Part shown: one piece after another, positions 35,098-57,667 of the stretch
How positions within the stretch are numbered: position 1 is the first letter of the stretch
Layout of the letters: every line of letters begins with the position of its first letter
Source: Rhizophagus irregularis
Taxonomy: Eukaryota; Glomeromycota; Glomeromycetes; Glomerales; Glomeraceae
Reading direction: 5' to 3'
DNA length: 64,000 bases
NCBI RefSeq assembly: GCF_026210795.1
Contig: NC_089441.1
Location: forward strand, 2,170,001 to 2,234,000
The notes under the pieces: model-generated
Seen by the model: the letters and a program-made list of their open reading frames with translations, nothing else
Told to the model about the DNA's origin: nothing
Database searches by the model: none
Program-made: the position numbers and the translations under genes

Positions 35098-36519
35098 ATG
35101 CCTTGTCAACTTCCTGCTGATTGTCTTAACGAAATTTTTGAATACTTAGAGAAAGATAAGGTTACTTTACATTCATGCTTATTAGTTAATCGTCTTTGGT
35201 GTGAGGTTTCTGTTAGAATCTTATGGAGAAATATTTGGATTGTTAATCCTGTTGACTATGGACATCGATTAAAAGTTGGATTATCGATTCTCAGTACACT
35301 GATCGCTTGTCTTCCTAATAAATCAAAAATTCATTTATATGAAAAAGGAATTCTTAATTCAAATGATATCTCAAAAACAACTCCATTATTTGATTATGCA
35401 TCATTTTGTAAAGTTCTTTCAATTCATGGAATTGGTCGAATAATTGTCGATGTTTTTAAAAATCATAAATATTTAGCAAAAGAAATAATCAAAATGTTTA
35501 TGACAAAATTTTCTTTAAAAAAATTATCTTATTATACTAATTCAAATACTGTCAATTTATCATTTATACGTTATCCTGGGGCAAAAGATTGTTTAAGAAA
35601 TCTTTCAAAATTTAGTTGTAATTCTAATGTTAAACCCGCATTTTTTTATAAATTATCACAAATATGTCATAATATTCAATCATTAACTATAGAATTTAAA
35701 AGTGTGGTTTCAAATGGATTAAAGGATTTAATTTCTTCACAAAATAGTTTAAAATATTTATCATTATCACAAACGTATGGTGTTGCTGATTGGACGGATA
35801 TTATACCTTCATTATCAAAACATTCGAGTACTTTAATTAAATTAAAAATATATGGGAGTGAATATTATAGGAACAGACCATTATCATTTGTTACTAGATT
35901 TACAAATTTACAAGAACTTGTTTTATCATTTCGTTATAAATATTATTTTGATGAACTTAATAATAATTTACAATCTGTTACTTTTCCACATTTAAAGATC
36001 TTAAAATTTCCATATGCATATCCAGATGATGATATATTAATTAAATTTTTAGAAAATAATGGAAAAAATTTAATAGAAATTTATATTAATAGTAGTGATT
36101 CATTAAATTTATCTATAGCTAAATTTTGTCCAAATTTAAAATCATTATATACCTTATTTAAATTTGATAAAATAGAAACATTAAAAATAATTCTTAATGA
36201 TTGTCAACAATTAGAAAGTATTGAAACTCAATATATTTATGATTTTTTAAGTGAAAAAGAACTTTTGGAAACTTTGGCAAAATATTCACCAAAAAATTTT
36301 TATAGATTAAAATTAATTAATTATTCAGATTCAAAATTAGTTCCGAAAGATTTAGAAGAATTTTTTTCTAATTGGAAAAATCGTGTACCATTAAAATCAT
36401 TTTCTTTTATTATTAGAAGATGGAATAATAGTTTAGAAAGTAAAGAAGGAAATATGAAAGTGATTGAAAAATATAAAAAGCTCGGTATTATAAAAAAATT
36501 TGAAACTATTTTATATTAA
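35098..36519 (+). CDS. F-box/LRR protein, copy 1
   Basis: Intact single-exon gene, 473 residues, ATG at 35098. Residues 1-46 are an F-box (LPADCLNEIFEYLEKDKVTL, then LVNRLWCEVSVRILWRNIW), the part that in known F-box proteins docks to Skp1 in an SCF ubiquitin ligase. The rest is leucine-rich with irregular LRR-like repeats (SLKYLSLSQ, LIKLKIYG, NLQELVLSF, HLKILKFP, NLIEIYIN) that would select the target. No membrane segment. The central and C-terminal parts are almost the same as copy 6, while residues 47-75 (NPVDYGHRLKVGLSIL) are like copies 4 and 5. AT-rich codon use, as in the other copies. The target is unknown. Confidence 0.92.
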   Translation: MPCQLPADCLNEIFEYLEKDKVTLHSCLLVNRLWCEVSVRILWRNIWIVNPVDYGHRLKVGLSILSTLIACLPNKSKIHLYEKGILNSNDISKTTPLFDYASFCKVLSIHGIGRIIVDVFKNHKYLAKEIIKMFMTKFSLKKLSYYTNSNTVNLSFIRYPGAKDCLRNLSKFSCNSNVKPAFFYKLSQICHNIQSLTIEFKSVVSNGLKDLISSQNSLKYLSLSQTYGVADWTDIIPSLSKHSSTLIKLKIYGSEYYRNRPLSFVTRFTNLQELVLSFRYKYYFDELNNNLQSVTFPHLKILKFPYAYPDDDILIKFLENNGKNLIEIYINSSDSLNLSIAKFCPNLKSLYTLFKFDKIETLKIILNDCQQLESIETQYIYDFLSEKELLETLAKYSPKNFYRLKLINYSDSKLVPKDLEEFFSNWKNRVPLKSFSFIIRRWNNSLESKEGNMKVIEKYKKLGIIKKFETILY

Positions 36520-36940
36520 TACATTGTATTTAATTATTTATTATTATGAATAAAGTTGTATATTGCATAATTATTATTAGCGAGTTTTCGAACGCTAGGA
36601 AAATTACGAATCTTAGTTTCATTGTCTTCATAGCACATAAAGTCTTTATTAAAATAAAAAGTAATTCGTTCCTATTAAACGCTCATTTTTTTAAAAAAAA
36701 TTGCTGTCGTAATAATAATCGTTAATCTATTCGCGCAATATTGACTTATTTATTTATTTATTAATTCGAATGATAGAATTCTTATTGTAAGTACATCAGA
36801 GATATATCGTAATTATTGTGTGTAAAAATAAAAATAACATTTCTCAATATTACGCCTACACCTAATTCGCTATTAACATTTCGATTTACTATTTTTTATT
36901 TTTCAATGTCTGGATCCCAAACTGCACCCGATTAATTAGC
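36520..36940. other. Intergenic
   Basis: AT-rich spacer after F-box copy 1; AATAAA at 36549 could serve as its poly(A) signal. Confidence 0.4.
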
Positions 36941-37103
36941 ATGAGCAAGTTGTACATTAACAATCCCCAACTGGTTTCGACTAGCATCACGCTCTCCAGT
37001 TATATTATTGGTAAGTCTTCGTCGCCATTCATTTTATTCTTTTATTTGCTCGAATCAAAAAAAAATATCTTTAGCGAAGGAATTCGGGATCGATTATAAA
37101 TAA
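36941..37103 (+). CDS. Spliced micro-ORF, 32 aa
   Basis: ATG 36941 opens a 70-nt exon (NPQLVSTSITLSSYII) that ends at a perfect GTAAGT donor (37011). A 64-nt intron with a T-rich middle ends in ATCTTTAG, and exon 2 (37075-37103) continues in phase (KEFGIDYK) to TAA. The peptide has one short hydrophobic stretch. It has no recognised relative and could also be a fragment of a larger gene. It lies between two F-box genes on the same strand. Confidence 0.4.
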
Positions 37104-37618
37104 CATAAATAAATTATAAAATGACAACCAATCTATTAATCACCAGTTTAATTCTCATGGCAAATTTTTCGAAAAATGAAAAATATGCTTATTAACGTTA
37201 AATTCGATAATATAATATGACTAAACCTTATGAAATTGAATTCCATACCTTTTAACTAGCGTAAAATGTACAATATCTTTTCAATTTAGAATGATTGGGT
37301 GCCTTTTATAATACCTTTATTTTATTAATTTAGTCAAAAATATAGAATTATTTTAATGATAACTTGAAAATTAACCTTTAACCCTAATGTGGATGTGTAA
37401 AATTAAACATTTTTTACCAGAATTAATACTAATATAAACAATTTATCTTTACAAAATAATATGCAAAGAAAGTAATCACCAGTTTTTATCCCGACCTTAA
37501 TTCTCGCACATCGTAATAAATCAAGGTCCAATAATATGACAGATTCTGCTGCAACTTAATAATTAATATTTACACAATAAGAACTAATATGGCATTCAAG
37601 TTTTTTCACGTGTACAAA

Positions 37619-37640
37619 ATCAATAATATAGTAATGATCA
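37619..37640 (+). promoter_or_regulatory. Second conserved upstream block (copy 2)
   Basis: ATCAATAATATAGTAATGAT, then CA. Near-identical blocks occur upstream of F-box copy 3 (40435) and, on the minus strand, copy 4 (47437-47415), 120-190 bp before each ATG. Confidence 0.45.
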
Positions 37641-37722
37641 AATGAAATGTAACAATAGGGGTGCTCAATGTTTAAATGGTTAGACCTTAGCATGTGTAAC
37701 GTGGCTTTAATCGCCAAGCCCC

Positions 37723-37744
37723 GTAACACCGTGAAAATATAAAG
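37723..37744 (+). promoter_or_regulatory. Shared upstream box and TATA-like element (copy 2)
   Basis: GTAACACCGT at 37723-37732 followed by TATAAAG at 37738-37744 and then CGCCGAC; the ATG is at 37808. Confidence 0.55.
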
Positions 37745-37807
37745 CGCCGACTCCCGACTTGTACTTTTTTTTTCCTCCTTTTCTTTACCAATTACAAAAA
37801 TATTAAA

Positions 37808-39250
37808 ATGCCTTGTCAACTTCCTGCTGATTGCCTTAATGAAATTTTTGAGTATTTAGAGAAAGATAAAGTCTCTTTATATTCATGTTCATTAGTTAAT
37901 CGTCTTTGGTGTGAAATTTCTGTTAGAATTTTATGGAGGAATATTTGGATTACTAAATCCATTACTCATGGACGACGTCGATTGAAAGTAAACCCATCAA
38001 TTATTAATACATTGATTACTTGTCTTCCTAATGATTCAAAAATCCACTTGTTTGAGAAAAAAATTCTTAATTCAACTCAAATCTCAAAAACTCCATTATT
38101 TGATTATGCATCATTTTGTAAAGTTCTTTCGATTAATGATATTGGTCAAATGATAGTTGATGTTTTTAAAAATCATAAATATTTAGCAAAAGAAATAATG
38201 AAAATGTTTATGACAAAAACTTCTTTAAAGAAATTATCCTATTATACAGATCCAAACACTATAAATTTGTCATTTCTGCGTTATCCTGGAGCAAAAGATT
38301 ATTTATCAAATCTTTCAAAATTAAGTTGTAGTTCTGATATTAAAACCAAATTTTTTTATATGTTATCCCAAATGTGTTGTAATATTCAATCATTAACTAT
38401 AGAATTTAAAGATATAGTTTCAAATGATTTAAAAATTTTAATTTCTTCACAAAATAATTTAAAATATTTATCTTTATCACGAACAAGAACATATAATACA
38501 ATAAATTGGACAGATATTATACCTTCATTAGCAGAACATTCAAAAAGTTTAACTAGGTTAAAAGTTCATTGGAGAAAATATGATTATTGGAATAGAACAG
38601 AACAACTATCATTTATTACTACATTCACCAATTTACAAGAACTTGTCTTATCATTTCATCATAAAGATTGTTTTGTTGGATTTAATAAGTTACAATATAT
38701 TACTTTTTCACAATTACAAATTTTAAAGTTTCCATATGAATATCCAGAAGATGATGTGTTAATTAAGTTATTGGAAAATAGTGGAAAAAATTTAAAAGAA
38801 TTTTACATTAATAGTAGTAGTAATTTAATATTATTAACCGTAGCTGAATTTTGTCCAAATCTGAAATCATTATATGCCCTATTTAATTATGATAAAATAG
38901 AAACATTAAAAGCGATACTTAATAATTGTCAACAATTAGAAAGTATTGAAACTCGGTATTATTTCAGTTTGTTAAGTGAAAGAGAGCTTTTGGGGACTTT
39001 AGCAAAATATTCACCAAAGGATTTTTATAGATTAAAATTAACTAATTATTCAGATTCACATTTAGTCCCAGGAGATTTAGAAGAATTTTTTACTAATTGG
39101 AAAAATCGTGTTCCGCAAAGACCGTTTTCTTTTATTAATAAAGGATTGTTTGGTTTAGAGAATAGAGAAGGGAATATGAGAGTGATCGAAAAATATAAAA
39201 AACTTGGTATCATTAAGAAATTTGAAACTATTTTAATTACTTTGTATTAA
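37808..39250 (+). CDS. F-box/LRR protein, copy 2
   Basis: Intact, 480 residues, one exon. The F-box at residues 1-46 differs from copy 1 only at a few places (SLYSCSLVNRLWCEISVRIL). Residues 48-60 are the second type, KSITHGRRRLKVN, shared with copies 3 and 6. The centre carries the variant RTRTYNTINWTDIIP, RLKVHWRKYDYWN and LSFHHKDCFVG, shared with copy 4. LRR-like repeats fill the rest and the end reads YKKLGIIKKFETILITLY. It lies 1.3 kb after copy 1 in the same direction. An SCF adaptor role is inferred from the family. Confidence 0.92.
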   Translation: MPCQLPADCLNEIFEYLEKDKVSLYSCSLVNRLWCEISVRILWRNIWITKSITHGRRRLKVNPSIINTLITCLPNDSKIHLFEKKILNSTQISKTPLFDYASFCKVLSINDIGQMIVDVFKNHKYLAKEIMKMFMTKTSLKKLSYYTDPNTINLSFLRYPGAKDYLSNLSKLSCSSDIKTKFFYMLSQMCCNIQSLTIEFKDIVSNDLKILISSQNNLKYLSLSRTRTYNTINWTDIIPSLAEHSKSLTRLKVHWRKYDYWNRTEQLSFITTFTNLQELVLSFHHKDCFVGFNKLQYITFSQLQILKFPYEYPEDDVLIKLLENSGKNLKEFYINSSSNLILLTVAEFCPNLKSLYALFNYDKIETLKAILNNCQQLESIETRYYFSLLSERELLGTLAKYSPKDFYRLKLTNYSDSHLVPGDLEEFFTNWKNRVPQRPFSFINKGLFGLENREGNMRVIEKYKKLGIIKKFETILITLY

Positions 39251-39751
39251 ATGTATTGTATATAATTATTAAATTGTTATTTACTTAGAAAATAAAGTTA
39301 CATTTTATACAATTATTATTATCAAACTAACGCCACTACCAATTTACTTATTGATACTTATATGATCGCTAAGGTACTAGTTTCAAAGAAAGACAAATCT
39401 CAACAAATAAATCTTATTAAAAAATATAATTCGTCCGTCATTGTCCTTATAATTAATATTAAATTTGTTTCATTTTGTGAACACCTTCAGTTATTATTAC
39501 TAATCAATCGAGATATCACTCCTGTTATTGAAAGTTATTAAAATTGTTAATCTTTGGTGTGATAAAATTATGGTGAAAATTTCCATAAATATTCGTTAAG
39601 ATTCTCGGTTGTCAATAATTTCGAATAAGGCAATAATTCATTTTTGTCATATTATTTCTGTTTGTTAATCATGTGGGAACCATTCAAATCCCCACGATCA
39701 AAATCCTGAAAATTCAAATCCTGAAGCTTAATTATTTCTGTCACTCATTTC
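39251..39751. other. Intergenic with weak F-box relic
   Basis: AATAAAG just after copy 2 may be a poly(A) signal. Near 39555 the words GTTAATCTTTGGTGTGAT recall the F-box codons for VNRLWCE, suggesting a plus-strand relic too decayed to delimit. Confidence 0.3.
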
Positions 39752-39884
39752 CTAACTCCATAAAATTGGAATTATCGTCTCACACCAAAGTCTGTTAACC
39801 ATTAGACATGAAAAGAGAGATTTTGAATCGTCTTTGTAATTCTTTAAATAATAAGAACAGAACATATTTATTAAGTTTAGACAT
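39752..39884 (-). pseudogene. Relic F-box N-terminus of a different clade
   Basis: From ATG 39884 the minus strand reads MSKLNKYVLFLLFKELQ, then after a one-base shift DDSKSLFSCLMVNRLWCE, then TIIPILWS and a stop. This is the start of the other common Rhizophagus F-box type (MSKL... SCLLVNR.WCE..IPILW), not of the neighbouring MPCQLP type. No LRR part follows. It is antisense to the array. Confidence 0.6.
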
Positions 39885-40064
39885 TTTTTTTTTTTGCAAC
39901 ATTCAAACATTCATTATCCCAACACATTATCTTTTTTATTATAATTTCGCAAAAAAAATGTCTCGTTTTTATTACATAATTAATGATTTTCATTAATATA
40001 TAAATATTATTATTGATACGTATTTATTGAAACAATTATGATTATTATAATATTTTGCGATAAT

Positions 40065-40253: not shown

Positions 40254-40434
40254 TTACAAATGATTACAAATCAAAAATGTTGATCAACCGGATCCCGGTT
40301 CACCAGCTGAGGTAGGAGCGAAACTTAGTATAATAATAAGATTTGAATCAGTGCATATAAAGCTAACATAACGCAGTGTAACATAATTAATAATTACACG
40401 ACTAATTGAGTGTTCATTTTTTATGCCAAACAAT

Positions 40435-40457: not shown

Positions 40458-40499
40458 CGTTATATGAGAGTTTGTGTAATTTTCTCAATGAAAATGTTT

Positions 40500-40576: not shown

Positions 40577-42010
40577 ATGCCTTTTCAACTTCCTGCTGAT
40601 TGTCTTAATGAAATTTTCGAATATTTAGAGAAAGATAAAGCCTCTTTATATTCATGCTTATTAGTAAATCGTCTTTGGTGTGAAATTTCTGTTAGAATTT
40701 TGTGGAGAGATATTTGGACAACCAAACCCGTTACCCATGGACGACGTCGATTGAAAGTTAATCCAACAATTCTTAATACATTTATCACTTGTCTTCCTAA
40801 TAATTCAAAAACCCACTTGCTTAAGAAAGGAATTCTTAATTCGACACAAATATCAAAAACTCCATTATTTGATTATGCATCATTTTGCAAAGTTCTTTCA
40901 ATTAATGAGGTTGGTCAAACGATCATTGATATCTTTAAAAATCAAAAATATTTAGCAAAAGAAATAATGAAAATGTTTATGGCAAAAACTTCTTTAAAGA
41001 AATTATCCTATTACTCTGATCCAAACACTATAAATTTATCATTTCTGCGTTATCCTGGAGCAAAAGATTATTTAACAAAACTTTCAAAATTAAGCTGCAG
41101 TTCTAGTATTAAATCCAAATTTTTTTATAAATTATCTCAAATAAGTTGTAATATTCAATCATTATCTATAGAATTTAAAGATATAATTTCAGATGATTTA
41201 AAAATTTTAATTTCTTCACAAAATAATTTAAAATATTTATCGTTGATACAATATAATAATACTGATTGGAGAGATATTATACCTTCATTAGTAAAACATT
41301 CGAATACTTTAATTAAATTAAAATTATTTTTGAGGAAATTTTGTAGAATTGGACAATTATCATTTATTACTAAATTGACAAATTTACAAGAACTTGTTTT
41401 ATTATTTCGTTATAATTATCATTTTGATGAAATTAATAGTAAATTACAATATATCACTTTTCCACACTTACAAGTTTTAAAATTTCCATGCGCATATCCA
41501 GATCATGATATGTTAATTAAGTTCTTAGAAAACAATGGGAAAAATTTAAAAGAATTTTATATTTTTAGTAGTGATGATTCATTAAATTTAGCCATAGCCA
41601 AATTTTGTCCAAACCTTATATCATTATATACTTTATTTAGAAATGATAAAATAGAAACATTTAAAGTAATTCTTAATAGTTGTCAACAATTGGAATCCTT
41701 TGAAACTCATTGTAATTACGAATTATTAAGTGAAAAAGAACTTTTAGGAGCCCTGGCAAAATATTCACCAAAAAATTTTTATAGATTAAAGTTATCGTTA
41801 GCTAATTATCTATTAGATTCAAGATTAGTTTCAGAAGATTTAGAAGATTTTCCTACTAATTGGAAGAATCGGGTACCACAAAAATCGTTTTCGTTTATTA
41901 TTAGAGGATGTACACGCAGTTCAGAGACTAAAGAGAAATATATGTCAATGGTTGAAAAATATAAAAAGCTTGGTATCAATATTAGATTTGATTTTAGTTG
42001 TTATAACTAA
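40577..42010 (+). CDS. F-box/LRR protein, copy 3
   Basis: Intact, 477 residues, one exon, ATG 40577 after a T-run. The second residue pair is PF instead of PC (MPFQLPADCL). The F-box is otherwise conserved (ILWRDIW). The adjacent segment is the KPVTHGRRRLKVNP type. The centre is its own variant (LIQYNNTDWRDIIPSL, LKLFLRKFCRIGQL), so this copy is the most distinct in the middle of the array. The C-terminus differs from the others (NIRFDFSCYN). LRR-like repeats continue throughout. Same strand as copies 1 and 2. Confidence 0.92.
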   Translation: MPFQLPADCLNEIFEYLEKDKASLYSCLLVNRLWCEISVRILWRDIWTTKPVTHGRRRLKVNPTILNTFITCLPNNSKTHLLKKGILNSTQISKTPLFDYASFCKVLSINEVGQTIIDIFKNQKYLAKEIMKMFMAKTSLKKLSYYSDPNTINLSFLRYPGAKDYLTKLSKLSCSSSIKSKFFYKLSQISCNIQSLSIEFKDIISDDLKILISSQNNLKYLSLIQYNNTDWRDIIPSLVKHSNTLIKLKLFLRKFCRIGQLSFITKLTNLQELVLLFRYNYHFDEINSKLQYITFPHLQVLKFPCAYPDHDMLIKFLENNGKNLKEFYIFSSDDSLNLAIAKFCPNLISLYTLFRNDKIETFKVILNSCQQLESFETHCNYELLSEKELLGALAKYSPKNFYRLKLSLANYLLDSRLVSEDLEDFPTNWKNRVPQKSFSFIIRGCTRSSETKEKYMSMVEKYKKLGINIRFDFSCYN

Positions 42011-43079: not shown

Positions 43080-44047
43080 TTAGATTTCACAAGTTGTACG
43101 GCAATGTTCTTCGTGTAATATACTCCACCATTCGATATTATTGGTAAGCAAGGCTAGAAAAAGCAAAAGAATTGCTACTATAAAACCCCAAATGCTAAAC
43201 CAGGCGTGAAGGAACTCATTACCTTCTACATCGTGTTCTTTTATTAGGTGGTTTATATATGCCAAAGCACTGTTGATTGACCATATAGAGCAGATTATTG
43301 TGAGATATTGGCTCCTACAATAATATCCAATTGGGGGTGTGTAGATCGCTAAAAATACTGTTAACCAGGGATATACTATGGATACAAAGGCAACTAGTGT
43401 AACACTAAAAAGTTTATGTTTTCTGTAGCTTTCACTTCCCGGTTTCATAATTATTTGTATATCTTGCAACTCAAATTCACAATTAGGGTCTTTAACTACT
43501 AGGGTCCCCGATATTACTCTCTTGAGGATTGCTGGAATTGTCCAGGATAATAATAATGGTATAAATGGCCAATCTTCACAATTATTTATTCCTGTCGTCC
43601 TGGATATTGCCGCGATTATACCGACTAATATGTAATATGTTGACACCAATGATGACATTCTGTCTAGCACAGATGCTCTTGCCGTACATCGGTTAATATA
43701 TTTCACTATATTGCTAAATTCATTCCGTTCTTTATCCACTGACATAGCGTAAACTCCGACAGGTCTGTGTTTAAGTTGTTGCAGCTGTTGATTTCGTTGT
43801 CCTGTGCTACTAAAATATTTTGACGAAAGCCAGTAAATACAGAGCTTTACTTCGTCTTTTCCTACGTTACAGGAATAAAGCAATCCCGTAAATGGACAGC
43901 CAAGGCATCGCAACACCCATGCCAACTTTTCCGCAAACTTCTCTTTTGGTGATGCTCCCATAATTGCAATAGCCGGTAAGCAACCCAACACATATTGGGT
44001 ATAGGATTTAAGAATTTACTTATGATATGTATAGCTTTTGATTCCAT
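43080..44047 (-). pseudogene. Five-helix membrane protein, copy 1 (one frameshift)
   Basis: Paralogue of the intact gene at 58955-59929. ATG 44047 starts ESKAIHIISKFLNPIP; one base is missing near 43997, after which the next frame carries LGCLPAIAIMGASPKEKFAE to the stop at 43080. Total length would match the 324 residues of the intact copy. Conserved motifs: KLAWVLRCLGCPFTG, YSCNVGKDE, RCTARASVLDRMSSLVS, WPFIPLLLSWTIPAI, then helices near the C-terminus and NNIEWWSILHEEHC. Apart from the shift there is no other break, so a sequencing error or a recent mutation are both possible. It lies 1.75 kb downstream of F-box copy 4 on the same strand. Function unknown. Confidence 0.7.
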
Positions 44048-44696: not shown

Positions 44697-44719
44697 GGTT
44701 ATTGTATACTACTAGTATG

Positions 44720-45797: not shown

Positions 45798-47231
45798 CTA
45801 TTTCAGTTCAAATTTTTTAATAATACCTAACTCTCTGTATTTTTTAATTATGCCCATATTTTCTTCTTTTGCCCCAAAACTATTCATACACCCTCTAAAA
45901 ACAAGAGAAATCGATCTCTGTGATACACGATTTTCCCAATTAATAAAAAATTCCTCCAAATCTTCTGGAACTAATTGTGAATATGAATAATAACGTACTT
46001 TTAATTTATGAAAATTTTTTGGTGAATATTTTGCTAAAGTTCCTAAAAGTTCCTTTTCACTTAACAAACCATAATAATATTGAGTATCGATACTTTCTAA
46101 TTGTTGACAATTATTAAGAACTGTTTTCAATGATTCTATTTTATCAAACCTAAATAAAGTAGATAGGAATTTTAAGTTTGGACAAAATTCAGCTATTGCT
46201 GATATTGTATTACTACAATTAATATAAAATTCTTTCAAATTTTTCCCATTATTTTCTAAGAATTTGGACAATACATAATCTTCTGGATATTCGTATAGAA
46301 ATTTTAAAATTTGCAATTGTGGAAATGTAATATCTAGTAACTTACTATTAAGCCCAGCAAAACAATCTTTATGATGAAATGATAAAATAAGTTCTTGTAA
46401 ATTGGTAAATGTAGTAATAAATGATAGTTGCTCTGTTTTATTCCAATAATTATATTTTCTCCAATGAACTTTTAATCTAATTAAACTATTTGAATGTTTT
46501 GCTAATGAAGGTATAATATCTGCCCAATCTGCCGTACTATGCGTTCTTGTTCGTGATAAAGATAAATGCTTTAAATTATTTTGTGAAGAAATTAAATTTT
46601 TTAAATCACTTGAAATTGTACCATTAAATTCTATAGTTAATGATTGAATATTACAACAAATTTGAGATAACTTATAAAAAAATGCAGATTTAACATTAGA
46701 ATTACAGCTTAGTTTTGAAAGATTTGTTAAACAACCTTTTGCTCCAGGATAACGTAAGAATGATAAATTTATGGTCTTTGAACTAGTGTAATAAGATAAT
46801 TTCTTCAAAGAAACTGTCTCCATAAACATTTTCATTATTTCTTTTGCCAGATATTTTTGATTTTTAAAAACATCAATAATCATTTGACCAATCATATGAA
46901 TTGAAAGAACTTTGCAAAATGATGCATAATTAAATAATGGAGTTTTTGAGATATGAGTTGAGTTAAGAATTCCTTTCTCAAGTAAATGGGTTTTCGATTT
47001 ATTAGGAAGACAAGCTATTAATGTATTAAGAATTGAAGTTCCTACTTTTAATCGACGACTATAATCAACATAATCAACGGGGTTAATAATCCAAATATTT
47101 CTCCACAAAATTCTAACGGTAACCTCACACCAAAGACGATTAACTAACAAGCAAGAATGTAAAGTGGCTTTATCTTTTTCTAAATGTTCAAAAATTTCGT
47201 TAAGACAATCAGCAGGAAGTTGACGAGGCAT
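45798..47231 (-). CDS. F-box/LRR protein, copy 4 (minus strand)
   Basis: Intact, 477 residues, one exon, ATG at 47231. It is the only copy on the minus strand. The F-box has small changes (MPRQLPADCLNEIFEHLEKD, EVTVRILWRNIW). Residues 47-65 are the NPVDY...RRLKVGTSIL type of copies 1 and 5, but the centre (RTRTHSTADWADIIPSL, RLKVHWRKYNYWNKTEQL, LSFHHKDCFAGL) is nearly identical to copy 2. That makes it a mosaic. The end is short (YRELGIIKKFELK). An SCF substrate-receptor role is inferred. Confidence 0.92.
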   Translation of the reverse strand: MPRQLPADCLNEIFEHLEKDKATLHSCLLVNRLWCEVTVRILWRNIWIINPVDYVDYSRRLKVGTSILNTLIACLPNKSKTHLLEKGILNSTHISKTPLFNYASFCKVLSIHMIGQMIIDVFKNQKYLAKEIMKMFMETVSLKKLSYYTSSKTINLSFLRYPGAKGCLTNLSKLSCNSNVKSAFFYKLSQICCNIQSLTIEFNGTISSDLKNLISSQNNLKHLSLSRTRTHSTADWADIIPSLAKHSNSLIRLKVHWRKYNYWNKTEQLSFITTFTNLQELILSFHHKDCFAGLNSKLLDITFPQLQILKFLYEYPEDYVLSKFLENNGKNLKEFYINCSNTISAIAEFCPNLKFLSTLFRFDKIESLKTVLNNCQQLESIDTQYYYGLLSEKELLGTLAKYSPKNFHKLKVRYYSYSQLVPEDLEEFFINWENRVSQRSISLVFRGCMNSFGAKEENMGIIKKYRELGIIKKFELK

Positions 47232-47292
47232 TTTTTTTTTTAATATTTTGTAATTGAAGAAGAAAAAAAAAAAGTTGGCACTTTGTGTTTGT

Positions 47293-47302
47293 ACCGTGTT
47301 AC
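47293..47302 (-). promoter_or_regulatory. Shared upstream box (copy 4)
   Basis: Read on the minus strand this is GTAACACGGT, 62-71 bp before the ATG, preceded by AATTTTCACAATGAAAA as in copy 3 and followed by AAACACAAAGTGCCAAC. Confidence 0.55.
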
Positions 47303-47414
47303 AAAAATTTTTTCATTGTGAAAATTATGCGTCATGTTACACAGACTAATAATTAAAAGCCAACCATTTAACGTTAAACACTATGCATTTAACTAACCCC
47401 TTGTTGATACATTA

Positions 47415-47437
47415 CAGATCATTACCAAATTGTTGAT
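47415..47437 (-). promoter_or_regulatory. Second conserved upstream block (copy 4)
   Basis: Minus-strand ATCAACAATTTGGTAATGAT, then CTG; a diverged match to the blocks at 37619 and 40435. Confidence 0.4.
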
Positions 47438-48284
47438 ATTGTACATCTATAATTAAATGTATTACAAGCAAAAAAAAAAAAATTAGTCATAATGTATGAT
47501 TGTCACGTCGTTACCTCTGTATTATGTTACCTTGTAGCACTTTAAAAAAATTTTATATACCGTGACATCTGCTACATGATTGGCAAAACTAATATCAAGG
47601 TTACAAATTCCTGCATTTATGGAAAAAATATGGGATTATAGAAAAACCATTTTTTAGAGATTATTGACCTTGATGAGTTTAGGTGTTATGCACCATACGT
47701 AGGGCTAATAGTAAACGAGTGCCGATCTCTTCTTATCTACAGTATTTGTATAATTGCTCGAATCCTGCATAAGTTGTTTATATAATAATTGCTTACTATA
47801 TAATAATATAATTTCTGAAACTAGTTTCATTCAATATCGGAAGTTTTAGAATTTCATCAAAGCAGTATTTTCGTTAAAAAGAAATACAAAAATATCGTGT
47901 AAAAACGTGTAAAGAGATTCAGACATCTGATCGGTCGTTCAATGATTTCTACTATGCCCGATCAGTTAAATTAATCGAATTTTGGTTTATCGGGCTTATT
48001 TTGTGTGCTCATAATTAATTCATGTGATCACCCATGTAGCGCATTATTTTGCCGAATTATAATAAATTGGCGAAGAGCGGTTCTCCGAGCTAATTATAGA
48101 TTTCCGGGAGGCGGTACACAGTTTCTTTACTTTACGCACAAAAAATAAAAATTGTAAAAAAAAATACGTATTTTTATCTTTATTTACAGCATTAGTAGTC
48201 ATACTTTTTTCTTTTTCCTCGAATCAGTCGTTATCAAATATTTATTGTATAACGTATATTAATTAATATAAACTATAAATCAAT
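47438..48284. other. Intergenic, part of a copied block
   Basis: Short matches to 58180-58530 occur in order (GAGTGCCG, ATAAG after CTGCA, TTTAGAATTTCA-like, GCGAAGAGCGGT with CTCC), showing that the upstream DNA of the membrane-protein gene was duplicated too. Confidence 0.45.
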
Positions 48285-48631: not shown

Positions 48632-49430
48632 ATGCCGACAATACTTAAATTATTAAATCCCATTCCTCAATATGTATTGGGATTATCCGCTATCGCAATA
48701 GTGGGAGAAACCCGAGAGAGAAGTTTGGAGAAAAATTGGCATGGCTATTTCGATGTCTTGCCTACCAATTTACGGATTATTTTATTCCTATAACGTTGGG
48801 AGCAGCAAGGCAGATCAATGTTTATATTGGCTTTCATCAAATTAATTGAAACCCGAAAGTCATTCTTCAGTTCGTTACAGATCAGTCGGAATTCATATCA
48901 AGGTAACGAGTCAAAATGAACTTCAATAATGTATAAATATAGGAATAAGACGATACACAGCAAGCACTTCTAGAAAGATTGTCATCATTAGTATCAGCAT
49001 ATTACATATTCGTTGGTGTAATAGCAGGAATATCTAGGATGTCAGAACCACTTACTATCTGTGAGATTGGCATACATACCATTACTATTATTGTCTTGGA
49101 CAATTTCAGTAATTTACATTGTAGTTTGATAAATCTAATTGTTAAAAATCCTAAAAGATATCTGGAAAACTTAAGACCAATAAATACTCTTACGATCAAC
49201 ACACTCCCAGTTGGATATTTTTGTCGGAGCGAATATATTACAGTAATATGTTCTATATATGGTCATTCAATAGTTTTTTTTTTTGAAAGGAGAAAGAGTC
49301 GTATTTGGTTATTGTATCTTACATGTTTGGTTTTCCGTTTGCGGTGTTGTAGACTTGTAGTAGCATTATTAATATTGCATTGCTAACAAATAACAGAGAA
49401 TTGTAGGTGAGAATTTTCGGACCATCTTGT
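48632..49430 (+). pseudogene. Five-helix membrane protein, copy 2 (pseudogene)
   Basis: Clear relic of the family intact at 58955. It reads LKLLNPIPQYVLG and AIAIVGET, then loses frame; later SSLVSAYYIFVGVIAGISRM is recognisable, followed by CEIGIHT, KNPKRYLENLRPI and PVGYFCRSEYITVICSIY in shifting frames. I count at least five frame changes or deletions, including loss of the segment between the third and fourth helices. The upstream DNA still resembles that of the intact copy (TATATAATCATTTT before the start, CTTCTCTTCCA near the ATG). Not likely to make a protein. Confidence 0.8.
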
Positions 49431-50198
49431 GAAAGAATGCTCATAAAAGAATTTGCAATTCATCTAGTTTATCTTGCCTATCTCTTAAATAGATAAATTT
49501 GAGCATCTTGTGGTTAACCTCTTTAAGTTGGCTACGGACTGTCTACCTTTTTTAGTCTTTCGATATGCCTATCCACGTTTTAAAAAATGGAAAAATAGAA
49601 TATGTAAATTTCATGGAGAAACTGTTAATTTTCACGGCTGCCGTGAAAATATATATTCTTCATATCACGATTCCGACCATAAATAAAGCTTTTTAATATA
49701 CCGTTTATCTAACATTGACGCTTTTTATCCACCTTTTTAAAAAACATCATCCGTGAGAAAAAAAATCATGGATTATTGTAATTATTTAATATTTACTATA
49801 GTTACTGTATGTATAAAATAATGATACACTTGTAGTTTTATTAATATTATAACTTGTTATTAGCTCTACTAGCTATTACAGATATTGTTACCACCGGTTT
49901 TTGACGTTCAGTAGGTAGTAACAGAAAAAAATATAAGGATCGGTTAATAAATGACAGGGTAATATAACGATATATGGCAAGCGATAAGGTAAAAGTGTAT
50001 ACGAATAAACGATAATGAACGATAATAAATGATGTGATCGATTGAGGGTAGTCGGATTGTGTATAAAAACGATTAGTAATGCGATGTATACGAAAATTTA
50101 ACAAGTGATAATAAAAGACAATGATAATAAACGATAATAAACGACAAGGAACAATAATAAACAGTGTGTCAAATATGATAAAACGTATATAAGTAATT
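49431..50198. other. Intergenic with short repeats
   Basis: A near-perfect palindrome TTTTCACGGCTGCCGTGAAA lies at 49629-49649. From 50010 to 50160 the words GATAATAAACGA and AATAATAAAC recur as an imperfect microsatellite. No gene seen. Confidence 0.45.
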
Positions 50199-51933: not shown

Positions 51934-53346
51934 ATGACCTGTCAACTTCCTGCTGATTGTCTTAAAGAAATTTTGGAGTATTTAGAGAAAGATAAAGCCT
52001 CTTTACATTCATGCTTATTAGTTAATCGTCTTTGGTGTGAAATATCTGTTAGAATTTTATGGAGGAATATTTGGACTATTAATCCTGTTGGTTATGAACA
52101 TCGAATGAAAATGGGAACATCAATTCTTAATATGCTAATTACTTGCCTTCCTAATAAATCAAAAAAATATTTACATGAGAAGGGAATCCTTAATTCAACT
52201 CAAATCTCAAGAACTTCATTATTTGACTATGCATCATTTTGCAAAGTTCTTTCAGTTCATGGAATTATTCGAATGATTGCTGATATCTTTAAAAATCAAA
52301 AACACCTTGAAGAAGAAATAATGAAGATGTTTATGAAGAAAAGTTCTTTAAAAAAATTAACTTATTATACTAATAATTCCAATACTATAAATTTATCATT
52401 TTTACATTATCATAAAGCAAAAGATTGTTTAACAAAACTTTCAAAATTAAGTTGTAATTCCAATGTTAAATTCTCATTTTTTCATAAATTATCTCAAATA
52501 TGTTTCAATATTCAATCATTAACAATAGAATTTAAGAAACCAATTTCAAATGATTTAAAAGATTTAATTTCTTCACAAAATCATTTAAAATATTTATCAT
52601 TAAGATTAAAATATGATATTACAGATATGAAAACAGATATTATATCTTCATTAACAAACCATTCAAATACCTTAATTAAATTAAAATTAGATTATTATCA
52701 GAATGGACCATTATCATTTATTACTAGTTTCATAAATTTACAAGAACTTATTTTAACATTTCGTAATAGAGATTATTTTCATGAACTTAGTGATAATTTA
52801 CAGCATGTTATTTTGCCACAATTACAAATTTTAAAATTTTCATGTGCGTATCCAGAAAGTGATATATTAATTAAATTCTTAGAAAAGAATGGAAAAAATT
52901 TAAAAGAATTTTATATTAGTTGTGAAGGTTCTAATGATTCAATAAATTTAGCTGTAGCTAAATTTTGTCAAAATCTGAATTCATTGTCTATTTTATTTGA
53001 TAGGATAGAAACATTAAATTTAATTCTTAAAAATTGTCAACAATTGGAAAGTATTGGGACTCGACATGATAACAACCTTTTAAATGAAAAAGATCTTTTG
53101 AATTCTTTGGCAAAATATTCACCAAAAAATTTTTATAAGTTAAAGTTATTTTATAATTCAAATTCAAAATTAACTCCAGAAGATTTAGAGGAATTTTTTA
53201 TTAATTGGAAAAATCGTGTACCACAAAGACCGTTTTCTTTTATTTTTAGAGGATGTAAAAATAGTTTAGAAGCTAAAGAAGGAAATATGGAAGTGATAGA
53301 AAAATATAAAAAGCTTGGGATTATTTTTAAATTTTTGAAACTATAA
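51934..53346 (+). CDS. F-box/LRR protein, copy 5
   Basis: Intact, 470 residues from ATG 51934; the in-frame TTG at 51904 is not used as a start in eukaryotes and the other copies begin at MPCQLP, here MTCQLPADCLKEILEYLE. Residues 47-65 are NPVGYEHRMKMGTSIL, the same type as copies 1 and 4. The centre (LRLKYDITDMKTDIISSL) is unlike the rest, and RYPGAK, invariant elsewhere, reads HYHKAK. It is the most diverged member but has no break. A truncated end (IFKFLKL) replaces the usual KFETIL. Confidence 0.92.
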   Translation: MTCQLPADCLKEILEYLEKDKASLHSCLLVNRLWCEISVRILWRNIWTINPVGYEHRMKMGTSILNMLITCLPNKSKKYLHEKGILNSTQISRTSLFDYASFCKVLSVHGIIRMIADIFKNQKHLEEEIMKMFMKKSSLKKLTYYTNNSNTINLSFLHYHKAKDCLTKLSKLSCNSNVKFSFFHKLSQICFNIQSLTIEFKKPISNDLKDLISSQNHLKYLSLRLKYDITDMKTDIISSLTNHSNTLIKLKLDYYQNGPLSFITSFINLQELILTFRNRDYFHELSDNLQHVILPQLQILKFSCAYPESDILIKFLEKNGKNLKEFYISCEGSNDSINLAVAKFCQNLNSLSILFDRIETLNLILKNCQQLESIGTRHDNNLLNEKDLLNSLAKYSPKNFYKLKLFYNSNSKLTPEDLEEFFINWKNRVPQRPFSFIFRGCKNSLEAKEGNMEVIEKYKKLGIIFKFLKL

Positions 53347-54227
53347 TTCCTTGATTATTAAGGTATAAGCTATTAATAGTTGTAAACATCGATGACAGTA
53401 TATATTTAATATAAGTATAAAACGAACAGTATATTATCATAAAACTATGTATATATGTGAATGAGAGGGAAGAACAATTTAGTACTTTGGTTGAATAGTC
53501 GGTAGCCTGATAGTATACTATTCTAGGAGAAGAGGGTAGTACGTATGAACTTATGGTATAATTTCCTTTATTATACTGCAGTACCCAGAAATTTTATAGA
53601 ATGTACAATACTATTTGAAAATTCCATACTTAGTTCGTTTTGTTTAATAATAAAGTTCAATAAGTAACTTATAACAAAAAGTATATACAATAATAATTGG
53701 ATCATTCAATTATTGAATTCAATGAATTTCTTTATTAATTAAATTTCTAGCCATTGTACCATGTGTATCTTGCAAATTGAAGTGAAGTTTAATACTGAAA
53801 GGTAAAATAATAAGATTATAAGGATACTAATTTTTACCGTAGATTATATCACCTGATTAATTTTTTTTTGCTTTTATCAGAATAACGGATAACCTATTTT
53901 CAGTTGCTGGTGGTTCCGGTCTCTGTCTCTATTATAAAAATAAAAAAATAACCTTTTTTTGATATTCTTTATCCTTCAACGTTCTTTAACATTCTTAATG
54001 TCTTTTAACGTTCTTTAACGCCATTGCTTTTCTTATGAGACTTTTGATGGTAAGCTTTTTTTTTATAATATTTGTTTTTTTTTATTTGCCATTGTTTCTT
54101 AATTACTCATTTTCTTTTTTGTAGATTTTTCATCAGTACCCTAGTAAATGAAGTTTCAAGTTTTTCGGAATTTCAGACGTCTAGTTTCTATACAGTAACT
54201 GTCTAGTTTTTTTTCTTTTCATTTTTC
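53347..54227. other. Intergenic
   Basis: No gene. CGTTCTTTAACATTCTTAAT and neighbouring copies of CTTTAACGTT at 53978-54022 form a small imperfect repeat. Confidence 0.4.
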
Positions 54228-54470
54228 ATTTGGGTTTCTTCTTTGAATTTCTGGTTTCATTGGTTTCTTTTGGATTTTTTTCTCAGATCATTTTTTTGGA
54301 TTTCAGGGTTTCATTGGGTTTCTTTCGGGTTTCTTCCTTGAGTCTTTCTTGGATTTTTTTGGGTTTCTTTGGGTTTCTTTTCGGGTTTCTTTTTTGGGTT
54401 TCTTTGATTCCTTCTCTGGGTTTCTTTTTTGGGTTTCTTTTTTGGGTTTTTTCTTGTGCTCCTTTTCTTT
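54228..54470 (+). repeat. Imperfect GGGTTTCTTT minisatellite
   Basis: GGGTTTCTTT and close variants (GGATTTC, CGGGTTTC) recur at least twelve times with irregular spacing. Open frames on both strands here reflect the repeat, not protein genes. Confidence 0.8.
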
Positions 54471-55374
54471 TGATTGAGATTTTTCATTTTCTTTATACTT
54501 TGACTTTGTGATTTCATTTTTACTTTATATTTGATTTTGATTTTATTTCGATTTTGGTTATTCATTTATCTTCTCATTTATTTTATCTTTGTTTTGGTTC
54601 ATTCTAATCTTGTATATTTTTATTTCTGGTTTCATTTAATCTTATTTTGATCTCATTTAATTTTATCTTTGGTTCATTCCATTTTTGACTTCGGTGGTGG
54701 TCATCAAGAGTCTGTAAAATCACAACCATAATATGATGTAACGAGATTATAGATTTAACAATAAATGTCTTTTAGGTTATAATAAAAATTAGTAATAATT
54801 AAAACTATATATAAATTATTTTTTATATACTTAAACTAAAAATTTTTTCATATAAAATTTTTTAATTTTTTATACGTGAGATTTATTATGGGTGAAATCA
54901 CCTGATTTTAATAAATTTATATATGGGTGAAATCACTTGGGTGATTTCGCACGGAGAGCAAATTAGCAACAGTCTTGTATTTATATAATCATAATGTATT
55001 ATGATGTAATATTAATGAAGTTAAAGTGTGAATATTGATACTCGGTAGTTTTTAAAGATTAAAATGTTGATGTTACAAAATTATCGTTTTTAAATAATTA
55101 TTTAAATAATCTAAATTAAATCATTATCGTCATCTTCAGAACGATGGCATCATATTAGGTATACTGTATTAGTAAAAAGGATTAAATATTATGATATCGC
55201 AGATGAAATAAAAACAAAATACTAGAAAACGGAAACTATTATTAAGTTCGAAGTGCTGTTAAGGTTTTATAGTTGTACGTCGTTACGTGTCGGACGGATA
55301 TCCGGACTTCGGACTAATAAAATGAAGGAATGAATATTAATATGATTTAAATACACAAAAAAAAATTGAAAATT
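54471..55374. other. Intergenic with a small inverted repeat
   Basis: GGGTGAAATCACCTGATTTT (54889) and GGGTGAAATCAC followed by GTGATTTCGC (54928-54953) form direct and inverted copies, perhaps one end of a MITE. GGACGGATATCCGG near 55292 is a short palindrome. No gene. Confidence 0.4.
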
Positions 55375-55745
55375 TTGCAACAACGAAACATACATCAAGA
55401 AGCCTAAACCCGTTAATTGAATCCTGATCCCATTTTCTTAAAAAAAAGTAAGAAGAAAGTTTTAAAATTTAATAAATTTAAATGATACAAAAATCGGAAA
55501 CTGTTATCATGCGAAATTCGTCTCTTAAAAAAAATGGATGATTTCAATTCCGCGCTACTTACAAATAATAATAAAGAACTATAATCTGAGAAATTAAACC
55601 CACCGGAACGAAAAACTAAAAAGTACGTCTAAGTCGTATAGTCAAGAATTAATATCAGAAAAACATAAAAAAAAGAACCGCTGAATCGCCTAAAAAGAAT
55701 TTTACTTACGATATTTCGCTACGAAAAAACTTAGATAACTCAATT
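55375..55745 (+). pseudogene. Long decayed coding relic, family unknown
   Basis: One plus-strand frame keeps a coding look over about 120 codons despite several stops: QQRNIHQEA, KLLSCEIRLLKKMDDFNSAL, SEKLNPPERKTKKYV and KKEPLNRLKRILLTIFRYEK. The Lys-rich composition suggests a nucleic-acid-binding or element-encoded protein, but no family is recognised. Not functional. Confidence 0.4.
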
Positions 55746-56147
55746 GTAAGGGTTGCTATACTATATTGTTTTCCCTATTATTTGTAAATTCTATATTGTG
55801 TCTAATGAATAAAACTCTGTTCTAGCTTATAATCTTCTTCAATTAATTATTAGTATTAGTTAGCTAAAAACATTTGAACGTCTTGAATGTAAATCATCAT
55901 AACGTATTATTTTGAATCATACGATTTGTATTACCATGCTTTCACCTTTAGAGTTAAGTTTATCATTTATTAAATCTAGTACAATCAATTTGTCACGCCC
56001 CTAGTATGGAATAAGGAGTGGACTGGTCTAGACCTTTCCTTCTTCGATTCAAAAAGTATGTAAACCATTGATCTACAGTAAATATCACACTCGGTAAAAT
56101 AATACTATCTATATTAGTAAATTTACAATAAAAGTGTTTGTAATAGT
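55746..56147. other. Intergenic
   Basis: AT-rich; no feature beyond the promoter region of F-box copy 6. Confidence 0.4.
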
Positions 56148-56157
56148 GTAACACGGT
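56148..56157 (+). promoter_or_regulatory. Shared upstream box (copy 6)
   Basis: GTAACACGGT, 77-86 bp before the ATG at 56234, followed by TAAGTGTAAATCGTG. Confidence 0.55.
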
Positions 56158-56233
56158 TAAGTGTAAATCGTGTTTGAATGGAACCTTTAATTTTTTTTTT
56201 CTTCTTTTTTTATTAAATCCAAAATATTCAAAA

Positions 56234-57667
56234 ATGCCTTGTCAACTTCCTGTCGATTGCCTTAATGAAATTTTCGAGTATTTAGAGAAAGATAAAGTCT
56301 CTTTATATTCATGCTTATTAGTCAATCGTCTTTGGTGTGAAGTTTCTGTTAGAATATTGTGGAGAAATATTTGGATTGGCAAGTCGATTACCTATGGTCG
56401 ACACCGATTGAAAGTAAAACCGGAAATTCTTAATACATTGATAATTTGTCTTCCTAATGATTCAAAAAATCATTTGCTTGAGAAGAGAATTCTTAATTCA
56501 ACTCAAATCTCAAAAACTCCATTATTTGACTATGTATCATTTTGCAAAGTTCTATCAATTCATGCGATTGGTCAAGTGATTATTGATGTTTTTAGAAGTC
56601 AAAAATATCTGACAAAAGAAATAATCAAGATGTTTGTGAAAAAAATTTATTCAGTGAAAAAATTATCTTATTATACAAATAATTCAAACACTGTTAATTT
56701 ATCATTTTTACGTTATCCTGGAGCAAAAGAATGTTTAACAAATCTTTCAAAATTAAGTTGTAGTACCGATGTTAAATCCGCATTTTTTTATAAATTATCT
56801 CAAATATGTTATAATATTCAATCATTAAATATGGAATTTAAAAGTGTGGTTTCAAATGGATTAAAAGATTTAATTTGTTCACAAAATAATTTAAAATATT
56901 TATCATTATCACAAACGTATGGTATTGCTGATTGGACAGATATTATACCTTCATTATCAAAACATTCGAATACTTTAATTAAATTAAAAATATATGGGTG
57001 TGAATATTATACTAGGTTCAGACCATTATTATCATTTGTTACAAGATTCACAAATTTACGAGAACTTATTTTATCATTTCGTTATAAACATAATTTTAGC
57101 GAACTTGACAACAATCTAAAATGTGTTATTTTTCCATATTTACAAATATTAAAATTTCCTCATTCATGTCCAGATGATGATATATTAATCAAATTTTTAG
57201 AAAATAATGGAAAAAATTTAGTAGAATTTTATATTAATAGTAGTGATTCATTAAATTTAGCTATAGCTAAATTTTGTCCGAATTTGAAATCATTATATAC
57301 CTTATTTAATTTTGATAAAATAGAAACATTAAAAATAATTCTTAATGATTGTCAACAATTAGAAAGTATTGAAACTAAATATATTACTGGTTTATTAAGT
57401 GAAAAAGACCTTTTGGAGACCTTGGCAAAATATTCATCAAAAAATTTTTATAAATTAAAATTAATTATTTGTTTAGATTCACACTTAGTCCCGAAAGATT
57501 TAGAAGAATTTTTTAATAATTGGAAGAATCGTGTATCATCAAAATCATTTTCCTTTATTATTAAAGGATGGAATAATAGTTTAGAAAGTAATCATGAAGG
57601 AAATATGAAGGTGTTCGAAAAATATAAACAGCTTGGTATTGTTAGTAAATTTGATATTAGTTATTAA
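56234..57667 (+). CDS. F-box/LRR protein, copy 6
   Basis: Intact, 477 residues from ATG 56234 (an in-frame TTG at 56174 is not a eukaryotic start). The F-box has V for A in LPVDCLNEIFEYLE. Residues 48-62 are KSITYGRHRLKVKPEI, the type of copies 2 and 3, whereas from SLSQTYGIADWTDIIPSL onward it is almost identical to copy 1 (LKIYGCEYYTR, FDKIETLKIILNDCQQLE). It is thus a second clear mosaic. The end reads YKQLGIVSKFDISY. The membrane-protein gene follows 1.3 kb downstream on the same strand. Confidence 0.92.
   Translation: MPCQLPVDCLNEIFEYLEKDKVSLYSCLLVNRLWCEVSVRILWRNIWIGKSITYGRHRLKVKPEILNTLIICLPNDSKNHLLEKRILNSTQISKTPLFDYVSFCKVLSIHAIGQVIIDVFRSQKYLTKEIIKMFVKKIYSVKKLSYYTNNSNTVNLSFLRYPGAKECLTNLSKLSCSTDVKSAFFYKLSQICYNIQSLNMEFKSVVSNGLKDLICSQNNLKYLSLSQTYGIADWTDIIPSLSKHSNTLIKLKIYGCEYYTRFRPLLSFVTRFTNLRELILSFRYKHNFSELDNNLKCVIFPYLQILKFPHSCPDDDILIKFLENNGKNLVEFYINSSDSLNLAIAKFCPNLKSLYTLFNFDKIETLKIILNDCQQLESIETKYITGLLSEKDLLETLAKYSSKNFYKLKLIICLDSHLVPKDLEEFFNNWKNRVSSKSFSFIIKGWNNSLESNHEGNMKVFEKYKQLGIVSKFDISY

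What the first reader, a model, noticed from the sequence alone, without database searches (positions are those of the whole stretch)
35098..57667. F-box/LRR array with shuffled (mosaic) segments
Six intact paralogues can be sorted differently depending on which segment is compared. After the F-box, copies 1, 4 and 5 share an NPVxY...KxG type and copies 2, 3 and 6 a GR(R/H)RLKV type. In the centre, copies 1 and 6 share QTYG(V/I)ADWTDIIPSL and LKIYG, while copies 2 and 4 share RTRT and RLKVHWRKY.YWN. So copies 4 and 6 each join the front type of one group to the centre of the other. This suggests gene conversion or unequal crossing-over that reshuffles target-binding surfaces while keeping the F-box, similar in logic to diversifying receptor families.
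Basis: partly seen in the sequence, partly recalled or inferred. Interest (0 to 1): 0.75.

Follow-up and report, generated by a model that had tools for sequence, protein, structure and literature searches.

The report
Mosaic F-box/LRR gene cluster
Six neighbouring copies of a gene for a probable protein-degradation adaptor appear to have swapped pieces of sequence with one another, so different parts of the same gene have different family trees; this is a clear but familiar kind of gene-family evolution.

Summary
Six uninterrupted F-box/LRR paralogues (470-480 aa, 66-80% aa identity) lie exactly where stated. The front (first ~180 codons) groups copies {2,3,6} against {1,4,5}; the LRR centre groups {2,4},3 against {1,6},5. 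Each segment rejects the other's tree (AU p=0.00018 and p<1e-50). The best single breakpoint gains 73.6 lnL, against at most 18.2 in 25 single-tree simulations. Exchange between paralogues is the best explanation; third codon positions agree, clearly in the centre and weakly in the front. Copy 4's front looks like a conversion tract: its upstream flank and its centre are both of copy-2/3 type. The functional reading is only half supported. The F-box is strongly constrained (omega 0.08) and variation concentrates in loops just after each LRR strand (p=0.0002), but those loops evolve at omega 0.41, below 1, and no positively selected class was found. The F-box travels with the front tract, and breakpoints do not fall at an F-box/LRR border. 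I read it as an ordinary SCF-adaptor family with old ectopic gene conversion, comparable to plant NLR clusters such as RPP8. The host is probably an arbuscular mycorrhizal fungus (recalled, untested).

The parts
35098..36519 (+). F-box/LRR copy 1 (473 aa), front type I, centre type I
   Evidence: ORF; PF12937 E 8.9e-06; trees
37808..39250 (+). F-box/LRR copy 2 (480 aa), front type II, centre type II
   Evidence: ORF; PF12937 E 6.1e-08; trees
40577..42010 (+). F-box/LRR copy 3 (477 aa), front type II, centre nearest type II (bootstrap 72)
   Evidence: ORF; PF12937 E 1.1e-06; trees
45798..47231 (-). F-box/LRR copy 4 (477 aa), mosaic: front type I, centre type II
   Evidence: ORF; PF12937 E 1.2e-05
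46574..47231 (-). Copy 4 front tract (aa 1 to about 185-220) related to copies 1 and 5; likely gene-conversion tract
   Evidence: breakpoint within 2 lnL at gap-free nt 630-645, within 4 lnL also 540 and 660, mapped; upstream flank of type II
47232..47531 (-). Upstream flank of copy 4, similar to upstream flanks of copies 2 and 3
   Evidence: local alignment z 17.3 (copy 2) and 15.1 (copy 3) against 2.1 (copy 1), 0.5 (copy 5), 5.7 (copy 6)
51934..53346 (+). F-box/LRR copy 5 (470 aa), front type I, longest terminal branch in the centre tree
   Evidence: ORF; PF12937 E 2.7e-05, at the cut-off; trees
56234..57667 (+). F-box/LRR copy 6 (477 aa), mosaic: front type II, centre type I
   Evidence: ORF; PF12937 E 1.7e-06
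56555..56771 (+). Zone of the copy 6 breakpoint (aa 108-180; best aa 108-128)
   Evidence: profile without copy 4: best 345, within 2 lnL 315-375 and 525, within 4 lnL scattered points from 240 to 585; mapped
36140..36225 (+). Run in copy 1 matching copy 6 at 85 of 86 bases: youngest-looking exchange tract
   Evidence: GENECONV-like global p 0.0072; 85 of 86
57288..57373 (+). Same run in copy 6
39758..39883 (-). Solo degraded F-box fragment between copies 2 and 3, with a stop soon after it
   Evidence: tblastn E 1.35e-05 to 1.7e-04 from all six copies; frames

Best explanation
The array is a tandem cluster of intracellular SCF substrate adaptors: an N-terminal F-box that would dock on Skp1, a helical linker, and a solenoid of about 12-13 LRRs that would hold the substrate. 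The copies are old duplicates (pairwise NG86 dS 0.27-0.45). After duplication, probably at least two separate ectopic exchanges between paralogues joined different fronts and centres. In copy 4 a front tract of up to about 0.65 kb of copy-1/5 type replaced the native one, most simply by gene conversion. Copy 6 (or its partner copy 1) exchanged the sequence 3' of about codon 108-180. Selection keeps the F-box nearly fixed and is least strict at the loops just after each LRR strand, so exchanges move existing rim variants into new contexts. Shown: the conflict, approximate breakpoints, flank type of copy 4, constraint pattern, F-box domain, predicted LRR fold. Inferred: SCF function, substrate role of the rim, conversion as the mechanism, the number of events.
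For: Front segment (nt 0-540) rejects the centre tree, AU p=0.00018; centre (540-1170) rejects the front tree, AU p<1e-50 and 0 in 10000 resamplings. Bootstrap (200 replicates): {2,3,6}|{1,4,5} 93 in the front; {2,4} 100 and {1,6} 99 in the centre. Two segments improve AICc by 116, three by 147. Single-breakpoint lnL gain 73.6 vs at most 18.2 in 25 simulations (the simulations were scanned every 60 nt, a grid that contains the observed optimum). PHI p=0.001. Third positions alone: the centre rejects the front tree, AU p=0.0012, and the ML tree of the front's third positions is the front topology. Third-position triplet tests: copy 6 from 3 and 1 p=0.0005, from 2 and 1 p=0.0055, copy 4 from 1 and 2 p=0.024. 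Upstream flanks of 2, 3 and 4 match one another, z 14.5-17.3. Best breakpoints differ for copies 4 and 6. Fold: TIR1 and COI1 among the best Foldseek hits. Omega: F-box 0.08, linker 0.24, LRR rest 0.20, rim 0.41.
Against: Fully silent sites are thin: GENECONV-like scan on 81 silent polymorphic sites, 0 of 15 pairs significant; silent PHI p=0.012, 0.002, 0.11 and 0.074 for four window sizes. In the front, third positions do not reject the centre tree (AU p=0.206), and one of five third-position triplets was not significant (copy 4 from 5 and 2, p=0.31). Nt 0-540 does not quite reject a third topology, the one best for 360-630, in which 1 and 6 already pair (AU p=0.058), although nt 0-360 does (p=0.006). 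On all sites only 1 of 15 pairs has a globally significant run. With copies 4 and 6 left out, a breakpoint still gains 22.0 lnL without topology change, so part of the gain is rate heterogeneity. BIC accepts only one breakpoint. Copies 1, 2 and 3 also appear as 'children' among the triplets at the floor. No outgroup or second strain was available.
Confidence: 0.77

Rival explanations
1. Convergent amino-acid selection: copies 4 and 6 independently gained the same motifs under selection for similar binding partners, with a single underlying gene tree.
For: The front conflict rests mostly on codon positions 1 and 2 (lnL difference 34.2) and little on position 3 (4.4, AU p=0.206); silent-site tests are mixed.
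Against: In the centre, position 3 alone rejects the front tree (AU p=0.0012); the position-3 ML tree of the front is exactly the front topology; copies 2 and 4 share the longer form at two indel sites; copies 1 and 6 match at 85 of 86 bases in one run.
Confidence: 0.1
2. One reciprocal crossover (an inversion) between the oppositely oriented copies 4 and 6 made both mosaics at once and also placed copy 4 on the other strand.
For: Copies 4 and 6 have complementary mosaics (front I/centre II and front II/centre I) and opposite orientation. The breakpoint ranges within 4 lnL overlap at nt 540.
Against: It predicts that upstream flanks move with the fronts, but copy 4's upstream flank matches copies 2 and 3, not 1 and 5; best breakpoints differ, nt 345 vs 645, and do not overlap within 2 lnL.
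Confidence: 0.12
3. Rapid adaptive diversification of LRR surfaces, like plant NLRs, with exchange favoured by selection for new targets.
For: Post-strand loops are more variable than the rest of the LRR part (mean entropy 1.08 vs 0.65 expected, p=0.0002) and have higher omega (0.41 vs 0.20, 2dlnL 25.3; 0.56 for the 15 such codons of LRRs 3-7).
Against: Rim omega is below 1 (2dlnL 35.4 against omega=1). Strand residues are not more variable than average (0.56 vs 0.65). M2a does not beat M1a in the front, centre or tail (2dlnL 0.75, 0, 3.24); the same code found strong simulated selection (10% of sites at omega 5) in 6 of 6 cases and stayed at or under 2.02 in 6 of 6 null cases, so weaker selection could be missed.
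Confidence: 0.12

Closest known systems
F-box/LRR (FBXL-type) SCF substrate adaptors, e.g. TIR1, COI1, Skp2
   Same: N-terminal F-box-like domain, LRR solenoid; Foldseek hits 2p1q_B (TIR1) E 4.3e-07, 3ogl_B (COI1) E 8.3e-07, 4i6j_B 1.2e-05 (FBXL3, name recalled), 1fs2_A (Skp1-Skp2) 7.2e-05
   Different: 12-15% identity and query TM-scores of 0.32-0.46 in those hits, and NLRP9 ranks second; no relative among solved chains by sequence (single match E 0.56); F-box part of the model is of low confidence; substrate unknown
RPP8 NLR cluster of Arabidopsis (PMC6771003, passages read)
   Same: Paralogue cluster with intergenic conversion; the LRR part and the rest give different trees; variation concentrated at exposed LRR positions
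   Different: RPP8 is an NLR with population data and Ka:Ks 0.75-0.97 in the LRR; here the LRR omega is 0.20-0.41 by another method and only one haplotype is known
Caenorhabditis F-box families (PMC8665587, passages read)
   Same: Expanded F-box paralogues, conserved F-box and faster C-terminal part
   Different: Those C-termini are reported with dN/dS windows above 1.5 in 73 of 95 C. elegans pairs; here 0 of 15 pairs exceed 1 overall and no selected class was found; 'gene conversion' has 0 occurrences in that main text
Fbxo6/Fbxo44 gene conversion in primates (PMC3984280, passages read)
   Same: Gene conversion between F-box paralogues covering the F-box and part of the substrate domain
   Different: One pair, FBA domain instead of LRR

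Membership tests
F-box/LRR SCF adaptors | F-box domain at the N-terminus | tested here: met
   PF12937 at or above gathering score in 6 of 6 copies; copy 5 exactly at the cut-off
F-box/LRR SCF adaptors | C-terminal LRR solenoid | tested here: met
   AlphaFold2 model of copy 1 with 13 strands alternating with helices from aa 142 on, block pLDDT 59-93 there; F-box/LRR and NLR chains lead the Foldseek list. Pfam LRR models match only copies 3 and 4 and stay below their cut-offs
F-box/LRR SCF adaptors | Binding to Skp1/cullin and ubiquitylation of a substrate | not testable with these tools
   needs biochemistry
Paralogue cluster shaped by gene conversion | Significant conflict of segment trees | tested here: met
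   AU tests, simulations, PHI
Paralogue cluster shaped by gene conversion | Tract flanked on both sides by sequence of another type | tested here: inconclusive
   met for copy 4 by upstream similarity, but flanks align only in short blocks, and copies 1 and 3 also share one (z 9.4); not shown for copy 6
Paralogue cluster shaped by gene conversion | Conflict also at silent sites | tested here: inconclusive
   third positions: yes in the centre (AU p=0.0012), not significant in the front (p=0.206); fully silent sites mixed
Diversifying receptor family (NLR-like selection) | omega above 1 at binding-surface sites | tested here: not met
   rim omega 0.41, below 1; M2a vs M1a not significant in 3 of 3 segments
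Glomeromycotina (host group) | Placement by sequence comparison with named genomes | not testable with these tools
   no genome held for the window; no relatives in viral or prokaryote collections; assignment is recalled from the look of the family, AT-richness and an HMG-box ORF

The most novel reading that the evidence does not exclude
An arbuscular mycorrhizal fungus would use ectopic exchange within F-box/LRR clusters as a standing source of new SCF substrate receptors, forming an intracellular recognition repertoire (for foreign nuclei, parasites or host-derived proteins) that parallels plant NLR clusters.
Probability: 0.08. Interest if true: 0.7.

Novelty: new member of a known kind. Interest (0 to 1): 0.33.

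Why it matters
If the host is an arbuscular mycorrhizal fungus, the array gives a concrete case of paralogue exchange in a lineage whose recombination has been debated (three papers in the listing, starts of abstracts seen). It offers marked breakpoints that can be scored across strains. For function it narrows the question: the variable rim of the LRR is where substrate choice would be expected to differ between copies.

Tried and rejected
Relatives: viral contigs (74 pattern matches, 0 relatives) and genome contigs (90 pattern matches, 0 relatives) gave nothing; each scan used two short peptide patterns, and neither collection is meant for fungi. All tree work therefore rests on the six window copies without outgroup. 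The genome search 'own' found no genome held. Sequence search of solved structures found nothing useful (single match, E 0.56). ARAGORN, run with its bacterial setting, found no tRNA.

Third segment (tail, from about aa 403-409): AICc favours a breakpoint there but BIC does not, and in the tail neither KH (0.070) nor AU (0.053) rejects the centre tree. I leave it open. NG86 sliding windows gave pN/pS of 0.78-1.01 for codons 181-320, which looked like diversifying selection; a codon model with base composition and transition bias does not bear this out, so I rejected it.

A misreading mended: in the output I first took the bp-RELL column for AU; one search printed the headers, and the AU values given here come from it. 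Notebook entry 2 still holds the bp-RELL values 0.0008 and 0.225 as AU. The confidence of the best explanation was lowered from 0.78 to 0.77 because of the third topology that nt 0-540 does not quite reject.

Literature: searches (nine of ten allowed; listings capped, e.g. 25 of 760) showed no paper that by title or start of abstract describes mosaic F-box/LRR arrays in Glomeromycotina; this says only what those listings showed. PMC8778642 (0 occurrences of F-box) and PMC12062965 (0 of fungi) were of no help.
Full report
What is there. Six uninterrupted ORFs of 470-480 codons lie at 35098-57667, five on the plus and one (copy 4) on the minus strand. All carry an F-box-like domain within residues 3-48. 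Pairwise identity is 79-87% in DNA and 66-80% in protein. tblastn of all six against the window finds no further full copy, only a degraded F-box fragment at 39758-39883 on the minus strand. The AlphaFold2 model of copy 1 (six-sequence alignment, mean pLDDT 68.9) shows a solenoid of strand-helix repeats from residue 142 to the end; the F-box region is of low confidence. Foldseek's best PDB hits are F-box/LRR proteins and NLRs: TIR1 2p1q_B E 4.3e-07, NLRP9 7wbt_A 5.3e-07, COI1 3ogl_B 8.3e-07; 50 of 762 matches were shown and TM-scores are modest. The proteins begin with the F-box, with no room for a signal peptide, so I take them as intracellular (sequence reading; no predictor was run).

Is the mosaic real. 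On 1374 gap-free columns (458 codons) the PHI statistic is 0.417 against 0.490 +/- 0.008 in 1000 permutations (p=0.001), also low on codon positions 1, 2 and 3 alone (p 0.001, 0.002, 0.010). The best single breakpoint is at gap-free nt 540 (lnL gain 73.6, AICc -116). Dynamic programming over 945 segments gives the lowest AICc at 4 segments, with 5 close, and the lowest BIC at 2. In 25 simulations under the single tree the best gain was 11.5 +/- 2.6, maximum 18.2. The trees are (c1,(((c2,c3),c6),c5),c4) for nt 0-540 and (c1,(((c2,c4),c3),c5),c6) for 540-1170. Nt 0-540 rejects the centre tree (AU p=0.00018, SH 0.002) and 540-1170 rejects the front tree (AU p<1e-50, SH 0 of 10000). A third topology, best for 360-630, is not quite rejected by 0-540 (AU 0.058) but is by 0-360 (0.006) and by 540-1170 (0.0005).

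Which copies are mixed. Leaving out {1,4}, {4,5} or {4,6} makes the two trees agree; no other set of up to two copies does. In a 3SEQ-like scan of 120 ordered triplets, 18 reach the permutation floor (1/4001), among them copy 6 as child of 2 or 3 and 1, and copy 4 as child of 1 and 2, but also copies 1, 2 and 3 as children. Of five triplets tested on third positions alone, four have p below 0.05 (0.0005, 0.0055, 0.0077, 0.024) and one 0.31. Without copy 4 the best breakpoint for copy 6 is nt 345 (within 2 lnL: 315-375 and 525); without copy 6 that for copy 4 is 645 (630-645); within 4 lnL the two overlap at 540. These map to residues 108-128 (or 180) of copy 6 and 215-220 (or 185) of copy 4.

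Conversion or crossover. Similarity outside the coding sequence is confined to short blocks. In the 300 bases upstream, copies 2, 3 and 4 match each other strongly (z 14.5, 17.3, 15.1), copies 1 and 3 share one block (z 9.4), copy 6 resembles 2, 3 and 4 moderately (5.4-6.6), and copy 4 does not resemble 1 or 5 (2.1, 0.5). So copy 4 has type-II sequence upstream, type I in the front and type II in the centre: two breakpoints, as in gene conversion. A single inversion by crossover between copies 4 and 6 would carry the upstream flank along with the front, which is not seen. The promoter blocks could be held by selection, so this is good but not final evidence. Identities in the exchanged parts (86.5% for 1-4 in the front, 85.7% for 2-4 and 91.0% for 1-6 in the centre) show the main events are old; one run of 85 of 86 bases between copies 1 and 6 looks younger.

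Against. Silent evidence is thinner: 0 of 15 pairs pass a GENECONV-like scan on 81 silent sites, and silent PHI ranges from p=0.002 to 0.11 with window size. In the front, third positions prefer the front topology but do not reject the other (AU p=0.206). On all polymorphic sites only 1 of 15 pairs passes the run test. With copies 4 and 6 removed a breakpoint still gains 22.0 lnL without topology change, so some of the signal is branch-length heterogeneity, for example the closeness of copies 2 and 3 in the front (90.0% vs 82.1% in the centre). Convergence alone is unlikely but not excluded for the front.

Selection and surface. Codon-model omega, with each segment on its own tree, is 0.08 for the F-box, 0.24 for the linker, 0.20 for the LRR part other than the rim, and 0.41 for the rim, that is the up to four residues after each strand that are not in a helix (38 of 458 codons; 2dlnL 25.3 over three classes); omega=1 for the rim is rejected (2dlnL 35.4). 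M2a vs M1a: 2dlnL 0.75, 0.0 and 3.24 in front, centre and tail. A check of this home-made code on simulated data gave 32.7-61.2 in 6 of 6 runs with strong selection and at most 2.02 in 6 of 6 without. Column entropy after strands is 1.08 (44 positions) against 0.65 expected (p=0.0002), and stays higher when only polar-consensus sites are compared (1.15 vs 0.58-0.73); the strands themselves are not above average (0.56). Twelve of the 13 predicted strands were used. The rim is the most tolerant or most varied surface, but not shown to be under positive selection.

Placement among known things. The domain make-up is that of SCF adaptors of the FBXL kind. The evolutionary pattern, different trees for LRR and non-LRR parts through paralogue exchange, is described for RPP8 (PMC6771003, passages); conversion between F-box paralogues for Fbxo6/Fbxo44 (PMC3984280, passages); faster C-termini for Caenorhabditis F-box genes (PMC8665587, passages). 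In Rhizophagus irregularis, conversion between non-tandem rDNA copies has been proposed (PMC6123716, passages), and an F-box protein is listed among effector candidates in the R. clarus effector paper (PMC4746824, passages). The assignment of the window to that group of fungi is recalled; an HMG-box ORF at 23203 and AT-richness fit but do not prove it.

Verdict. The finding is real, and its recombination reading is largely right; the crossover and diversifying-receptor parts are weaker. It is a good new example of a known kind.

Noticed in passing
43080-43961 (-), 48640-49432 (+), 58955-59929 (+): A second family, membrane-like by eye and without a Pfam match above cut-off, is interleaved with the F-box genes; the middle copy is broken by frameshifts and stops. 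Two copies lie 1.3-1.8 kb downstream of an F-box copy in the same orientation (copies 4 and 6), hinting at an old two-gene duplication unit.
   Followed up: partly
39758-39883 (-): Solo F-box fragment between copies 2 and 3, a stop soon after it and no LRR part found.
   Followed up: partly
23203-23601 (+): ORF with an HMG-box (PF09011 E 3.8e-06).
   Followed up: no
30646-31319: Direct repeat of about 225 bases, roughly three units, 84-88% alike.
   Followed up: no
8001-14000: Stretch of marked positive GC skew (0.22-0.30) unlike the rest of the window.
   Followed up: no
alignment codons 161-320 of the six copies: Uncorrected synonymous differences dip (pS 0.17-0.24 vs 0.26-0.39 elsewhere) close to where replacement differences peak; not explained beyond possible composition effects or partial homogenisation.
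   Followed up: partly
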